Shown: one piece after another, positions 2,312 through 31,482 of the stretch | Layout: every line of letters starts with the position of its first letter | Position numbering within the stretch: position 1 is the stretch's first letter | Source: Procambarus clarkii | Lineage: Eukaryota > Arthropoda > Malacostraca > Decapoda > Cambaridae | DNA length: 64,000 bases | NCBI RefSeq assembly: GCF_040958095.1 | Contig: NC_091220.1 | Span: 18,203,750-18,267,749 of the forward strand | Reading direction: 5' to 3' | Made by a program: the position numbers and the translations under genes | Notes under the pieces: model-generated | What the model saw: the letters and a program-made list of their open reading frames with translations, nothing else | Databases searched by the model: none | Told to the model about the DNA's origin: nothing

Positions 2312-2500
2312 AACCCACAAATCAGAGCATAAAGGAGTTGACAACGTTTTGGTGTGTCCTCGGCCATTATCAAGTCACGTAAATGATAACGGTCCAGGAT
2401 GGATTGAAACATTTCCTTTATTTTTATTTATCATTTCCTTTATTTTTAGATTTGTGGGTTGGGTGTCTCATTTTCAGCCCCTTTATTGTGACTTATTGTC
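2312..2500 (+). mobile_element. Old hairpin element, hammerhead-like family
   Basis: Diverged inverted arms share GGTCCAGGATGGA and the complementary arm, followed by the tail TTTATTGTGACTTATTGTC. No clear target duplication was found. Confidence 0.5.
2339..2377 (-). ncRNA. Hammerhead-like motif, decayed hairpin element
   Basis: On the minus strand: TGAC, TTGATAA, T, a 15-base stem-loop region, AAAACGTT, GTCA. The outer TGAC/GTCA pairs perfectly as stem I although it differs from the CGAC/GTCG of younger copies. Stem II and the first base of the GAAA box are degraded. Confidence 0.35.
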
Positions 2501-3229
2501 ACCCTAAAATTAGTATTGATATCAAGTCACATGAAAATGACAAGTAATAAACAAATAGAACAATTAACAATAAATACAAAAACAATAAATAAACACCGAA
2601 AGCAAAGATCTACTTGGAAAGATCAGGAGAGAATGTGGAGTCTGGAAGTAGAGACTGAGTCACTTAATATTAACAAATAAACATGAATTTTGGTTAGCAA
2701 GAAATGTTTGATGACTTATCTTCATGAATTAAGAAACCAAAGGATAACACTGCTTCAAGAGAAATGAATAATTAAGATGAATAAAACAACTACTCTTATC
2801 AAAAGAACAACCTGGCATTATATTTTCACAGTTTAATCATCAAAATTAGGCACAAAACAAACTAAAACTCTAAGAGTGTCTATAATGATAAAAGTTATCT
2901 CACATGGTGATAAAAACGGCCTGTGAAAGAGGCTTGACGAGAGAAAACAAAAGACTGCACAACTATTTACAGATATTAAGATTACACACAAGGAGACCTG
3001 GAATTTTGTTATGCAATTACCAGTAATGTACATCTATATATAAAAAAAAAATTATGCAGGCCTGCTATACCTGACAATCAAGTGCAAGCTAAACAGCAAT
3101 TTGGAACAGAGTTAAGGACTACCAGTAATAATTAATCACTAAAAAGCCACCTGATCAACGAGAGGGTGTGGAGCAAGAGAGATCAGTTTCAAGTAAAAAA
3201 AAAAATACAAGAAAATTATGACTACAAAC
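2500..3229. other. No recognised gene
   Basis: AT-rich DNA just downstream of the last RECQL5 exon seen. The next RECQL5 exon is not visible here or further left. Confidence 0.5.
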
Positions 3230-3418
3230 CAGCGACATCATGCCTTTGCGATACATCATTAAGACAAAGGTGGAAGTGAAGACGCTGTACTCCAGTTTCA
3301 CAGCCACGTCCTCTATATCAGATTCTTTTAATCTATTTAAAACTGGTCCGGAGTCACCACAGACTTCATAGTTTTTCTGAAGTGCTTGAAACACCAACTG
3401 GAGGTAACTCTCTCTTGT
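3230..3418 (-). CDS. RECQL5: RECQL5 exon 12 (KIX-like), last exon seen
   Basis: Residues 577-639 include [16 protein letters not shown] and [14 protein letters not shown], aligning with the human KIX region (ALSSNRQ... and VELEHETFRNAKV). The acceptor is TTTCAG|ACAAGA. The presumed donor CTG|GTTTGT is weak, so the 3' limit is the least certain border of the gene. Confidence 0.82.
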
Positions 3419-6400
3419 CTGAAACATTTTTAACCACCATTTTAAAGCAAAGAATTAACACGAATGAGAGAAATATAAACATTTTATTTTCATTATCTAA
3501 AGGAATACTATTTATCAACATGTCAATGCATTAAACCAACAATGTGCAGATTATACATATTATTCCAGGACAAATTTACCGGAAGATAAGGCACTGAGAG
3601 CGGTAAGATTAGTATACTGTATATATATAGTGGCACTTCGATTAATGAGCGGCTCTATCTATGAGCACTTCGAGTAACGAGCGAGCCACTCGCAGAACAT
3701 TTGTCTCTACTAACGAGCTTTTCCTCGAGTAACGAGCGTTTCCGCTGGTTCTCGGACACCTTTTACGACAGTTTTATCGTCGTTTCGGAAGACGAGTTTT
3801 CCACATGACGAGCTCGGTGCCAGGAGGGATTAAACTCATTAACTGAGGTGCCACTGTATACTGTATATATATCTTAAGGTTATCTTGAGATGATATCGGG
3901 GCTTAGCATCCTGATCCTCGACAAGGCCTTTTGTTACACAACCCCAGGAAGTAGCCCATAGCAGCTGTCTAACTACCAGGTACCTATTTATTGATAGGTG
4001 AACAGGGGCATAAGGGCGAAAGAAACTCTGCTCATTTGTTTTTGCCTCCGCTGGGTATCAAACCCGGAACCTGAGGGCTACGAATCCCGAGCTCTGTCCA
4101 CTTGGCCGTCAGGGCCCCATATACTGTAAGTTCACTTGAATCTTTAGTGTACAAAATGTATATATATTATTATTATCAGCATTTTAAGATGACCAAACCA
4201 CACATCACAAGATGAAGAAATGATAACATCTCGGTCTGTCCTGGACCATTATCAAGTCGTGTGTGAGGGGTCCAGGACGGACCGAAACAGTCATTTCTTC
4301 AACTTTCGATGTATGATTTGGTCATCATATCTTCAGCCACATTATTGTGACTCATCGTCAGCATTTTATATTTTCAGTTCCCTAGTTGTCTTGTGGGGTA
4401 GCATATAGGCATGTGGTGGAGCCACCTGAGTGGGCCTTCAACTTCTACCATTCAGTGGAAAAATGCAGATTGTTCAGAATATTTTGCAAAACAAGAGTAA
4501 TGCAAAATTGAATACAGGTTTACCACATTTGAAAATCAATTACCAATAAATTTCATTAATGGATGGCAATCAAGAAAATTATACAAATTATGACAAATAT
4601 GAAAAATATATTCTTAAATTATACTCTATCTTAGTATGATATGTACACTTAACAATATATTATTTAGAAAATAAATTAAATACTGTTTGCTTATATAATG
4701 ATCAATTCAACAACAACAATAAAATAATTTCAGTCACCAATTTACCATAATATTAAGTCCAATGATCTTTGAAGTAAATTCTGCATTTGTCAGCTTAGAT
4801 CTTTTCGCACGATCATTCTCCTCTTTCTCCAACTTTTCCTTTTCTTTCTGTTCTTTCAGGCGACCATTGTAAGATGAGGAACCAGTGGAAGATTTTTTAC
4901 CGCGGCGAAGAGCAAGCTGTTGTTTAATGAAATTTGTGCGCTGCTTCTTGGCTGCATGTTCAGCCTCTCTGGCCCTGTCTTCCCCATCTCCACATTGGTC
5001 ATAGTCTTCTTGCTCTCTGAAATACCATATACCCTGAAAATTCATCTGCCTATATTTATAAAACCATCAACAACTTCAAAGTCAAAAGCCTCCAATAACT
5101 AACAAAAATGTATAAGCTGAAAATAAGGCACAATAACCCAACAAATTATAGAAGCTGAAAAATAAGGCACAATAATCCAACAAATTATAGAAGCTGAAAA
5201 ATAAGGCACAATAACCCAACAAATTATAGAAGCTGAAAAATAAGGCACAATACCCAACAAATTATAGAAGCTGAAAATAAGGCACAATAACCCAACAAAT
5301 TATAGTTAGTTTATTTTGGTAATTTATATTTACTAACTACATGAGTTTTTTGTTTACTAACTACAGTACAGAGTAAACAAAATTCTAATAAAGCCTCCAG
5401 TCTTCCAGTGCCAAGGTTTTCCCGAACTGCTCACTAGATTCATGCTGCAACTTCTCAAACATTATTTGTGCCAAGCTATTCAACAAAGACTAGCTTGGCA
5501 TGTTATTTTTGCCCCAATTCAATTCTACTGAATGCCCTACTCGAACTGCTTACTGAACTGCAAGCTTACTGAATGCCCCACGGCAGCGTGACATCCTGCA
5601 CTGATGGAGCAGGGGATCTTTTTAAATGAACCTGTAAGTTATGTGGAGTGTGCAGAGTAATACTGAATAATTCAAAGCCAAAGTGACTAAATAAGGTTCA
5701 CTTGAGTATAACGTTACTGGAAGAATTATAACACATGAAAATGTGGGGAATGATCAGCATTAAAGGGTTAAAAAGCTTTATATATGTATCATCCTGCACT
5801 CACCATGATAAGATACATGACACAAAATTAGCTTTACGACACCAACCATTTCAAAGTTGTTTTACAACGGAAAATATAGAACAAGACAGTTACCACACAA
5901 TACAACCTAAACACACTTCACTATTCCAATATTTCTATGGCACCATGTCATAACAAAATATACAGTATACTAATTATTTGTTTCAATGACGTTTAAATAT
6001 CAAGACTTCTTTGTTAAACTGTACTTTGGTACTTCAATTTCTATAATATTCTACTCTTCCAAAACATCTTACCTTTCACTCTTTCAACATACCCTACCTT
6101 TCACTTTTCCAACATAACTTTCATTCTTCCAACATATTTTACCTTTTCAAACCTCTTCTTCCTCCACCATACAAATCAGGGTCATCACAACCATTTTCAA
6201 AGGCAGCCACAGCTTGAAACCTGTAGGACGACTTACGGACCAGGGCGGTATTCCATTCTTCTACCCGCTTTGCTGATAACTGAGGGTTGGTACAGTAATC
6301 ACAGTGCTTCTTACAATCTGGTTTATTGTCGCCAAAATACAGAGCAAAGGAATGGTGCCGGCAGCTACAAGAGAGAATAAAACAGACTTTGTAAAACAAT

Positions 6401-31300: not shown

Positions 31301-31380
31301 TGTCTTCTGTTTGCAGGCGATGAGTCACAATAACGTGGCTAAAGTATGATGACAAGACCACACACCAGAATGTGAAGGGA

Positions 31381-31419
31381 CGATGACGTTTCGGTCCGTC
31401 CTGGACCATTCTCAAATCG
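31381..31419 (-). ncRNA. Hammerhead-like motif with compensated stem I
   Basis: On the minus strand: CGAT, TTGAGAA, T, GGTCC-AGGAC-GGACC, GAAACGTC, ATCG. Relative to the partner arm at 31444, both members of the innermost stem I pair changed (C-G to T-A). Confidence 0.45.
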
Positions 31420-31443
31420 ATTTTGAGTCGATTGTCTCACAAT

Positions 31444-31482
31444 CGACTTGAGAATGGTCCAGGACGGACCGAAACGTCGTCG
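31444..31482 (+). ncRNA. Hammerhead-like motif, right arm
   Basis: Consensus arm CGAC, TTGAGAA, T, 5-bp hairpin, GAAACGTC, GTCG. It forms the inverted partner of the motif at 31381-31419. Confidence 0.45.

What the first reader, a model, noticed from the sequence alone, without database searches (positions are those of the whole stretch)
2339..31482. Hammerhead-like RNA cores with a U3-A8 swap, and a stem I that covaries between copies
Arms of the hairpin elements at 2.3, 9.4, 11.4, 21.1, 21.4 and 31.3 kb read: stem I strand, TTGANAA, one base (mostly T), stem-loop, GAAACGTY, stem I strand. In a hammerhead ribozyme the layout is stem I, CUGAUGA, stem II, GAAA, stem III, UH, stem I. Here positions 3 and 8, which pair in the active fold, are U and A instead of C and G. 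Position 7, the tolerant one, is T, G or C. One extra base follows position 9; a viroid hammerhead with an extra base there is known. Stem I is CGAC/GTCG, CGAT/ATCG, TGAC/GTCA or GGTG/CATC, fully paired each time with one wobble. The ACGT between GAA and the cleavage site is self-complementary, which would suit a dimeric stem III. Sequence facts are direct; ribozyme function is inference.
Basis: partly seen in the sequence, partly recalled or inferred. Interest (0 to 1): 0.88.

Follow-up and report, generated by a model that had tools for sequence, protein, structure and literature searches.

The report
Retroelement arms carrying altered hammerhead motifs
The hairpin repeats look like short jumping elements of the Penelope type in a very large animal genome, probably a crayfish; their arms carry a small hammerhead-type ribozyme motif with one core base pair swapped, found there about 50,000 times, and whether it still cuts RNA is untested.

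Summary
The motif is real. Five window sites match the full relaxed layout; 25 resampled windows gave none. The own genome (4.03 Gb) holds 49,620 exact TTGANAATGG-N11-CCGAAACGTY cores, 0 reversed. The arms form short inverted-arm retroelements with 11-14 nt target duplications and outer ends clustering near +61 and +95 from the core ATG, which fits the two reverse-transcription start sites and 'tail' of Penelope-like elements (PLEs; PMC11167929). The genome also has canonical CTGAAGA cores with the same extra base, no stem III loop and other stem II sequences; one lies 177 nt past a frame of a decayed GIY-YIG PLE copy. Families A and B (11.4 kb) are best read as U3-A8 variants of the known minimal PLE hammerheads in short elements without a gene. 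Stem I covariation between copies fails: 1,003 broken C..A pairs against 32 compensated T..A, 26 expected if independent. Natural U3-A8 swaps were reported in 2011. No PLE gene was found joined to an A or B arm, and cleavage is untested.

The parts
9391..9584 (+). family A element: inverted left arm, short spacer, right arm with tail
   Evidence: arms 96% complementary over 77 nt; flanked by exact 14-nt repeat ATATACCTGAAGGT at 9377-9390 and 9585-9598
9482..9512 (+). intact U3-A8 hammerhead-like core, stem I CGAC/GTCG
9427..9457 (-). core strings intact, stem I 3 of 4 paired (GGAC/GTCG)
10737..10905 (+). family A element; right arm truncated inside the core region, left core GAAATGTC
   Evidence: 13-nt flanking repeat with 1 mismatch at 10724-10736 and 10906-10918; arms
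4187..4357 (+). older family A element, both cores altered
   Evidence: exact 11-nt flanking repeat TCAGCATTTTA at 4176-4186 and 4358-4368
2299..2501 (.). diverged family A element (two arms); left core ends CAAAACGTT, right core ATGATAA...GAAACATT
11402..11649 (-). family B element, same architecture; no-tail arm ends at +59, tail arm at +95
   Evidence: 12-nt flanking repeat with 1 mismatch at 11390-11401 and 11650-11661; 2,079 first-look candidates in the genome, 40 scored; other copies
11585..11614 (+). family B core TTGACAA...GAAACGTT (right arm; stem II carries a change against other copies)
11473..11502 (-). family B core, left arm (GAATCGTT and a changed stem II against other copies)
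21056..21170 (+). single family A arm with tail; intact core 21066-21096
21367..21416 (-). single short family A arm; intact core 21378-21408
31309..31515 (-). family A element; cores 31385-31415 (-) with stem I CGAT/ATCG and 31448-31478 (+) with CGAC/GTCG
   Evidence: 14-nt flanking repeat with 1 mismatch at 31295-31308 and 31516-31529
33083..33178 (+). eroded family A arm with tail
   Evidence: nhmmer E 3.4e-12

Best explanation
The hairpin elements are short, gene-less elements mobilised like Penelope-like elements, each made of two copies of the same RNA 5' region joined head to head. A PLE enzyme supplied in trans reverse-transcribed the RNA from both cut target ends, starting near one of two sites about 61 and 95 nt downstream of the core ATG. 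The two cDNAs met near the RNA 5' end, which left inverted arms, usually one with a 'tail' and one without, between target duplications (architecture shown; enzyme, trans supply and order of steps inferred). The RNA 5' region carries a variant of the minimal type I hammerhead of PLEs: stem I, a 7-nt core, one extra base, stem II, GAA, a loop-less self-complementary stem III and H17. In families A and B the core pair 3-8 is U-A instead of C-G (shown). By analogy with other PLE hammerheads, cleavage would need two RNAs to pair through ACGU, or protein help (inferred). Within a single element the long hairpin would compete with the ribozyme fold (fold predicted; effect inferred).
For: Repeats of 11-14 nt flank 5 elements, exact in 2 and with 1 mismatch in 3. 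Of 123 arms in the window and L001-L085, 38 end at +61 to +65 and 50 at +96 to +98, where the query itself ended; the other 35 end elsewhere. Of 41 adjacent arm pairs, 40 are inverted and 36 have one tail arm and one without. Sequence beyond the arm is shared with another locus in 15 of the 123. Family B ends at +59 and +95. The Anolis PLE study reports extension on both target strands, two internal RT start sites whose interval is the 'tail', the ORF starting at stem II and the cut 26 bp into it (PMC11167929). Canonical CTGAAGATG...CGAAACGTY: 232 genomic matches, 0 reversed. Across 9 hand-chosen representatives the first four stem II pairs form in 35 of 36 cells against 19.6 permuted, 0 of 20,000 permutations reaching it. 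L088 holds a decayed GIY-YIG PLE copy with a canonical core 177 nt past its last frame. The review PMC7761336 describes minimal PLE hammerheads without helix III that may act as dimers.
Against: No PLE protein gene was found joined to a family A or B arm, so the PLE link is by architecture and by relatives. In the Anolis study the RT start site did not differ between the two target strands, whereas here paired arms mostly use different sites (36 of 41). Rfam reports no hammerhead at E<=10 in 9380-9640, though it also misses the canonical PLE core in L088. Within family A neither stem I nor, convincingly, pair 3-8 shows compensation. None of the 123 arms begins between +24 and +36, where the predicted cut (+26) lies, and one begins at +23; most arms were chosen for holding the core, so this is a weak test. 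Many fetched canonical copies have a decayed stem II or stem I. With randomly drawn representatives stem I pairs in 24.7 of 40 cells against 15.7 permuted (fraction 0.009); without A and B the fraction is 0.09.
Confidence: 0.82

Rival explanations
1. Ribozyme fossil (compatible with the PLE origin above): the arms descend from a PLE with a hammerhead, but in the amplified short families the motif no longer cleaves and is carried along, or is kept for another role such as protein binding.
For: Single changes at 3 (555) and 8 (194) and broken stem I pairs (1,003 C..A) occur in the genome. No arm of 123 starts at +26. In the Anolis PLE, ribozyme mutants did not affect insertion in vitro and no RNA ends were seen at the cut site.
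Against: Genomic copies are expected to decay even if the source copies cut. The commonest family A form, and two independent family B copies by flank, keep the required parts.
Confidence: 0.45
2. Hairpin MITEs: non-autonomous DNA transposons with long inverted repeats, the hammerhead likeness being coincidence.
For: Arms are inverted repeats, 92-96% complementary at 9.4, 10.7, 11.4 and 31.3 kb, less at 2.3 and 4.2 kb.
Against: In 36 of 41 pairs one arm has a tail of about 35 nt that the other lacks, target duplications vary from 11 to 14 nt, and two outer sites recur in two families. The layout recurs in other families with other stem II sequences.
Confidence: 0.04
3. Hairpin RNA (miRNA-like or dsRNA) locus: the conserved feature is the long hairpin, not a ribozyme.
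For: Whole elements fold into very stable hairpins, -78 to -151 kcal/mol for 4 elements. Rfam's best sub-threshold hits are miRNA precursors such as MIR6136 at 61 bits against a cut-off of 99.
Against: Those hits lie below the curated cut-off and fit any such palindrome. The hairpin follows from the proposed insertion mechanism, and single arms at 21.1 and 21.4 kb carry the same core.
Confidence: 0.05
4. Pure chance: a repeat that happens to look like a hammerhead with two relaxed positions.
For: The pattern was chosen after seeing the sequence, and all family A copies count as one event.
Against: 0 matches in 25 resampled windows; a second family, and canonical families, with the same layout in the same genome.
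Confidence: 0.03

Closest known systems
Minimal type I hammerhead ribozymes of Penelope-like elements (Cervera and de la Pena 2014; Lunse, Weinberg and Breaker 2017; both seen only as cited in PMC7761336, passages)
   Same: Core layout; helix III with no non-conserved nucleotides, so cleavage perhaps as dimers; place in PLE pseudo-LTRs or dispersed
   Different: Families A and B have U3-A8 instead of C3-G8. I could not read the two primary papers, so I do not know whether such variants are listed there.
Hammerhead of Poseidon from Anolis carolinensis (PMC11167929, main text section read in two parts and passages)
   Same: Start codon at the beginning of stem II with positions 3 and 8 before it; cut 26 bp into the frame (25 nt in family A); tail set by two RT start sites; both target strands extended
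   Different: There C3-G8, a full PLE ORF, RT starting 111-118 bp into the ORF and no difference of start site between strands; here U3-A8, about +61 and +95, mostly one of each per element, no ORF
Natural U3-A8 hammerheads of Perreault et al. 2011 (PMC3088659, passages read)
   Same: Same compensated 3-8 exchange, stated to be active in vitro from earlier work
   Different: 'Several' examples there; here the prevailing state of a family with 49,620 exact cores, in PLE-type minimal motifs
Animal retrozymes (PMC7229834, outline and abstract read; PMC7761336, passages)
   Same: Short non-autonomous retroelements with type I hammerheads
   Different: Retrozymes are repeats of about 150-300 bp spread through circular RNA; here inverted arm pairs, with 1 direct pair among 41 adjacent arm pairs

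Membership tests
Hammerhead ribozyme | Stem I - core - stem II - GAA - stem III - UH - stem I order | tested here: met
   Family A at 5 of 12 window arms; family B copies L113-L115. Stem III is ACGT without loop, so it could form only between two strands.
Hammerhead ribozyme | Consensus core CUGANGA with C3-G8 | tested here: not met
   U3-A8 in 49,620 cores against 17 C3-G8, 555 C3-A8 and 194 U3-G8. The pairing is kept, and natural U3-A8 variants are reported; hence filed as a variant.
Hammerhead ribozyme | G12 A13 A14, A15.1-U16.1, H17 | tested here: met
   GAAACGTC in the intact A arms and GAAACGTT in the fetched B arms
Hammerhead ribozyme | Helices supported by covariation | tested here: inconclusive
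   Stem II yes between hand-chosen families (35 of 36 cells). Stem I between families moderate, within family A none at the one pair counted genome-wide.
Hammerhead ribozyme | Match to an Rfam hammerhead model | tested here: inconclusive
   No match in the window at gathering scores nor in 9380-9640 at E<=10; the canonical PLE core in L088 is missed too
Hammerhead ribozyme | Self-cleavage at the predicted site | not testable with these tools
   needs RNA work
Penelope-like element | Target duplications of variable length (recalled as a PLE trait) | tested here: met
   11-14 nt at 5 elements, 3 of them with 1 mismatch
Penelope-like element | Optional 30-40 bp tail between two RT start sites | tested here: met
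   outer ends near +61 and +95; 36 of 41 adjacent pairs mixed; family B the same
Penelope-like element | RT plus GIY-YIG endonuclease ORF | tested here: not met
   absent from these short elements; PLE sequences exist elsewhere in the genome but none was found joined to an A or B arm. Hence only 'PLE-like, non-autonomous'.
Animal retrozyme | Tandem units | tested here: not met
   1 of 41 adjacent arm pairs is in direct orientation
Animal retrozyme | Circular RNA | not testable with these tools
   no RNA data

The most novel reading that the evidence does not exclude
The U3-A8 exchange is the working, selected state of the hammerhead in the mass-amplified short PLE-like families of this genome: a tuned-down ribozyme that leaves most RNA intact as insertion template and still cuts as an ACGU-paired dimer. 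The inverted arms are a genome-wide record of reverse transcription primed from both target strands at two RNA sites.
Probability: 0.2. Interest if true: 0.65.

Novelty: new variant of a known kind. Interest (0 to 1): 0.42.

Why it matters
It turns rare U3-A8 core swaps into a family with tens of thousands of copies beside canonical families in one genome, so the effect of the swap on activity and on amplification could be tested directly. The clustered outer ends and the tail/no-tail arm pairs are a large natural data set for the two-site, both-strand priming seen in vitro for a single PLE. For annotation, hairpin elements of this type would be filed as PLE products, not as MITEs or microRNA genes.

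Tried and rejected
Exact 22-mer core in viral contigs and genome contigs, and the 9.4 kb element in phages: no match. Rfam on the whole window and on one element: no hammerhead; the same kind of search on a canonical PLE core also fails, so this is no evidence against. Core strings in paper texts: none. Papers 10.1093/molbev/msu232, 10.1093/molbev/msab225 and PMC5785218: not held. Covariation of stem I within family A: rejected. My first genome pattern carried one A too many and sampled insertion variants (173 matches; its reversed control gave 4); its loci L009-L038 were still used as sources of arms. Hand-picked family representatives gave a stronger stem I result (28 of 36 cells, 0 of 20,000 permutations) than random ones; I rely on the second. 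The stem II figure also rests on the hand-picked set; L106, with 2 stem II pairs, and other decayed copies were not in it. In one search my stem II column indices were wrong and that part is not used. A and B aligned outside the core score 45, within the range of 300 shuffles (mean 33, maximum 47; the A, B and C strings there were typed by eye), so I cannot say whether U3-A8 arose once or twice. On checking this report I changed the novelty class from 'new member' to 'new variant', because two defining features are not met, and lowered the main confidence from 0.84 to 0.82 for the strand difference from the Anolis study.
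Full report
What is in the window. The arms named in the finding belong to two repeat families. Family A has 12 arms plus one eroded arm in the window. Family B is the 11.4 kb element. Five family A sites satisfy the whole layout (stem I 4 pairs, U3-A8, one extra base, stem II, GAA, self-complementary ACGT, H17), and 25 resampled windows gave none. 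The other seven arms depart in the core, in stem I or in both, so the finding's 'fully paired each time' is selective.

What the elements are. Five elements are flanked by 11-14 nt repeats, exact in two and with one mismatch in three. Each has two inverted arms meeting head to head; the 21.1 and 21.4 kb arms stand alone, 259 nt apart and in the opposite order. In a sample of 123 arms from the window and L001-L085, 38 outer ends fall at +61 to +65 and 50 at +96 to +98, counted from the A of the core ATG (the query itself ended at +98); 35 fall elsewhere. Of 41 neighbouring arm pairs, 36 have one tail arm and one without, 4 have two without, and 1 is in direct orientation. In window elements with flanking repeats the no-tail ends lie at +61, +61, +62 and +63 and the tail ends at +91, +95, +97 and +101; family B ends at +59 and +95. 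Sequence beyond the arm is shared with another locus in 15 of 123 arms, which look like duplicated loci. In the Anolis PLE, purified protein extends both target strands, reverse transcription starts at two internal sites, and the interval between them is the PLE 'tail' (PMC11167929). I infer that the hairpins are products of this reaction on a short RNA, joined where the two cDNAs met. One point differs: that study saw no difference of start site between the strands, while here the two arms mostly end at different sites.

The genome. The window lies in an assembly of 4,027,284,227 bases. I take it to be a crayfish, probably Procambarus clarkii, for which 4.03 Gb and 2n=188 are stated in PMC12842422 (passage), helped by my recollection of decapod repeats. 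That is inference; the assembly is unnamed. Penelope elements make up on average 2.3% of the Astacidea genomes in one survey (PMC10454600, passages).

Why hammerhead. The genome contains 232 matches to CTGAAGATG-N7-20-CGAAACGTY and none to the reversed pattern (100 places listed). Fetched copies fall into several families with different stem II sequences, all with the extra base after A9 (the pattern fixed it as T for those). Stem II pairs over 4 to 6 positions in the better-kept copies, but only 1 to 3 in seven fetched loci (L089, L103, L104, L105, L106, L109, L112). Over nine hand-chosen representatives the first four stem II pairs form in 35 of 36 cells against a permuted mean of 19.6 (0 of 20,000 permutations). 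The locus L088 was found through a GIY-YIG hit with one stop inside and a nearby core match; its core reads CCTT-CTGAAGA-T-GTAT-taat-ATAC-GAA-AGTACT-T-AAGG and lies 177 nt past the last open frame. Pfam finds GIY-YIG above its cut-off and RVT_1 below its cut-off in the related PLE locus L087, and GIY-YIG in L086; the corresponding place in L087 is degenerate. Six further family B arms were fetched. Five show GGTG / TTGACAA / C / stem-loop / GAAACGTT / CATC; the sixth, L118, has TTGACAG. Stem II GGCT...AGCC is intact in L113, L114, L115 and L118, but the first three share flanks and look like one insertion copied, so these are two independent copies. Thus A and B fit the minimal PLE hammerhead except at positions 3 and 8, where C-G is replaced by U-A.

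The extra base explained. In family A the base after A9 is T and makes ATG at the start of stem II; the predicted cut lies 25 nt into that frame. In the Anolis PLE the ORF also begins at stem II, with positions 3 and 8 before it, and the cut is 26 bp into the ORF. So the extra base is a trait of this set rather than an oddity; in the fetched family B arms it is C, so it is not always a start codon.

Tests against the finding. Genome counts for the inner stem I pair: T..A 32, T..G 1,222, C..A 1,003, out of 49,620 cores. Independence predicts 26.2 T..A (P of 32 or more 0.15; margins from these three counts only, other bases not counted). The three outer stem I pairs were not counted genome-wide. 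In 57 held arms with both flanks recognisable, out of 116, 15 have a variant stem I and 10 of these break it. Two arms changed on both sides of one pair: the window copy at 31385, which pairs, and L066, which does not. For pair 3-8: C-G 17, C-A 555, U-G 194, U-A 49,620. Of the 17, three are another family (stem II GGAGT/ACTCC), six are copies of one compound repeat, and eight are separate family A copies (my reading), against 2.3 expected (P 0.002). This excess is weak evidence and could reflect old copies with more changes. Between families stem I pairs in 24.7 of 40 cells with random representatives against 15.7 permuted (fraction 0.009), and without A and B the fraction is 0.09.

Known or new. 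Minimal PLE hammerheads lacking helix III, which may act as dimers, are known (PMC7761336, passages). U3-A8 exchanges in natural hammerheads, and their activity in vitro, were stated in 2011 (PMC3088659, passages). I could not read the two primary PLE hammerhead papers. My searches for PLE hammerheads in crustaceans or decapods found no account of these elements in the held library: one search listed one paper, on retrozymes, and two papers that I judged irrelevant from their titles; two searches listed 2 and 20 papers on PLE hammerheads, of which I opened passages or sections of five (PMC11167929, PMC6431247, PMC7761336, PMC7229834 and, PMC10085705). What is new here is this variant family: its scale, its prevailing U3-A8 core and its two-site arm architecture.

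What stays open. Nothing here shows that the RNA cuts. In the Anolis PLE the ribozyme needed protein, was dispensable for insertion in vitro and left no RNA ends in public data. None of the 123 arms starts between +24 and +36, but most were selected to contain the core. Inside one element the two arms form a hairpin of -78 to -151 kcal/mol (4 elements), which would compete with the ribozyme fold. A 39-nt core folded alone forms stems I and II, with the extra U pairing to G12 in the predicted minimum.

Noticed in passing
window 21635-22522 and 26634-27356: Two CWC15 (Cwf_Cwc_15) open frames about 5 kb apart, each matching nearly the whole Pfam model without a stop; one may be a retrocopy or a tandem duplicate.
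   Followed up: partly
window 50447-52250: A 25-bp minisatellite of more than 1.7 kb that is open in several frames, coding for a repetitive His/Thr/Ser-rich peptide; probably not a gene.
   Followed up: no
window 273-491, 28587-28805, 32359-32577, 33668-33889, 35055-35273, 40202-40423, 43319-43540, 62723-62941: A dispersed family of about 220 nt; the Rfam tRNA hit at 33672-33742 lies in one copy, so it may be a tRNA-derived SINE (recalled as common in decapods).
   Followed up: no
L041, L042, L049, L050, L052, L053 around position 1500: A compound repeat in which a SINE-like sequence abuts a family A arm with CTGAAGATGG; the six places share both flanks, so the compound itself has been copied.
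   Followed up: partly
L088 1557-2236 and 2829-3461: Two 3' parts of a PLE in inverted orientation, 86% identical, each with the canonical hammerhead-like core nearby: the same inverted-pair habit in a coding PLE.
   Followed up: partly
window 12984-13346 and 6139-6507: Exon-like pieces of a RecQ-type helicase (DEAD 2e-7; RecQ zinc-binding below cut-off) on the minus strand.
   Followed up: no
window 63785-63992: A 52-bp unit repeated without any mismatch (three overlapping 104-nt copies).
   Followed up: no
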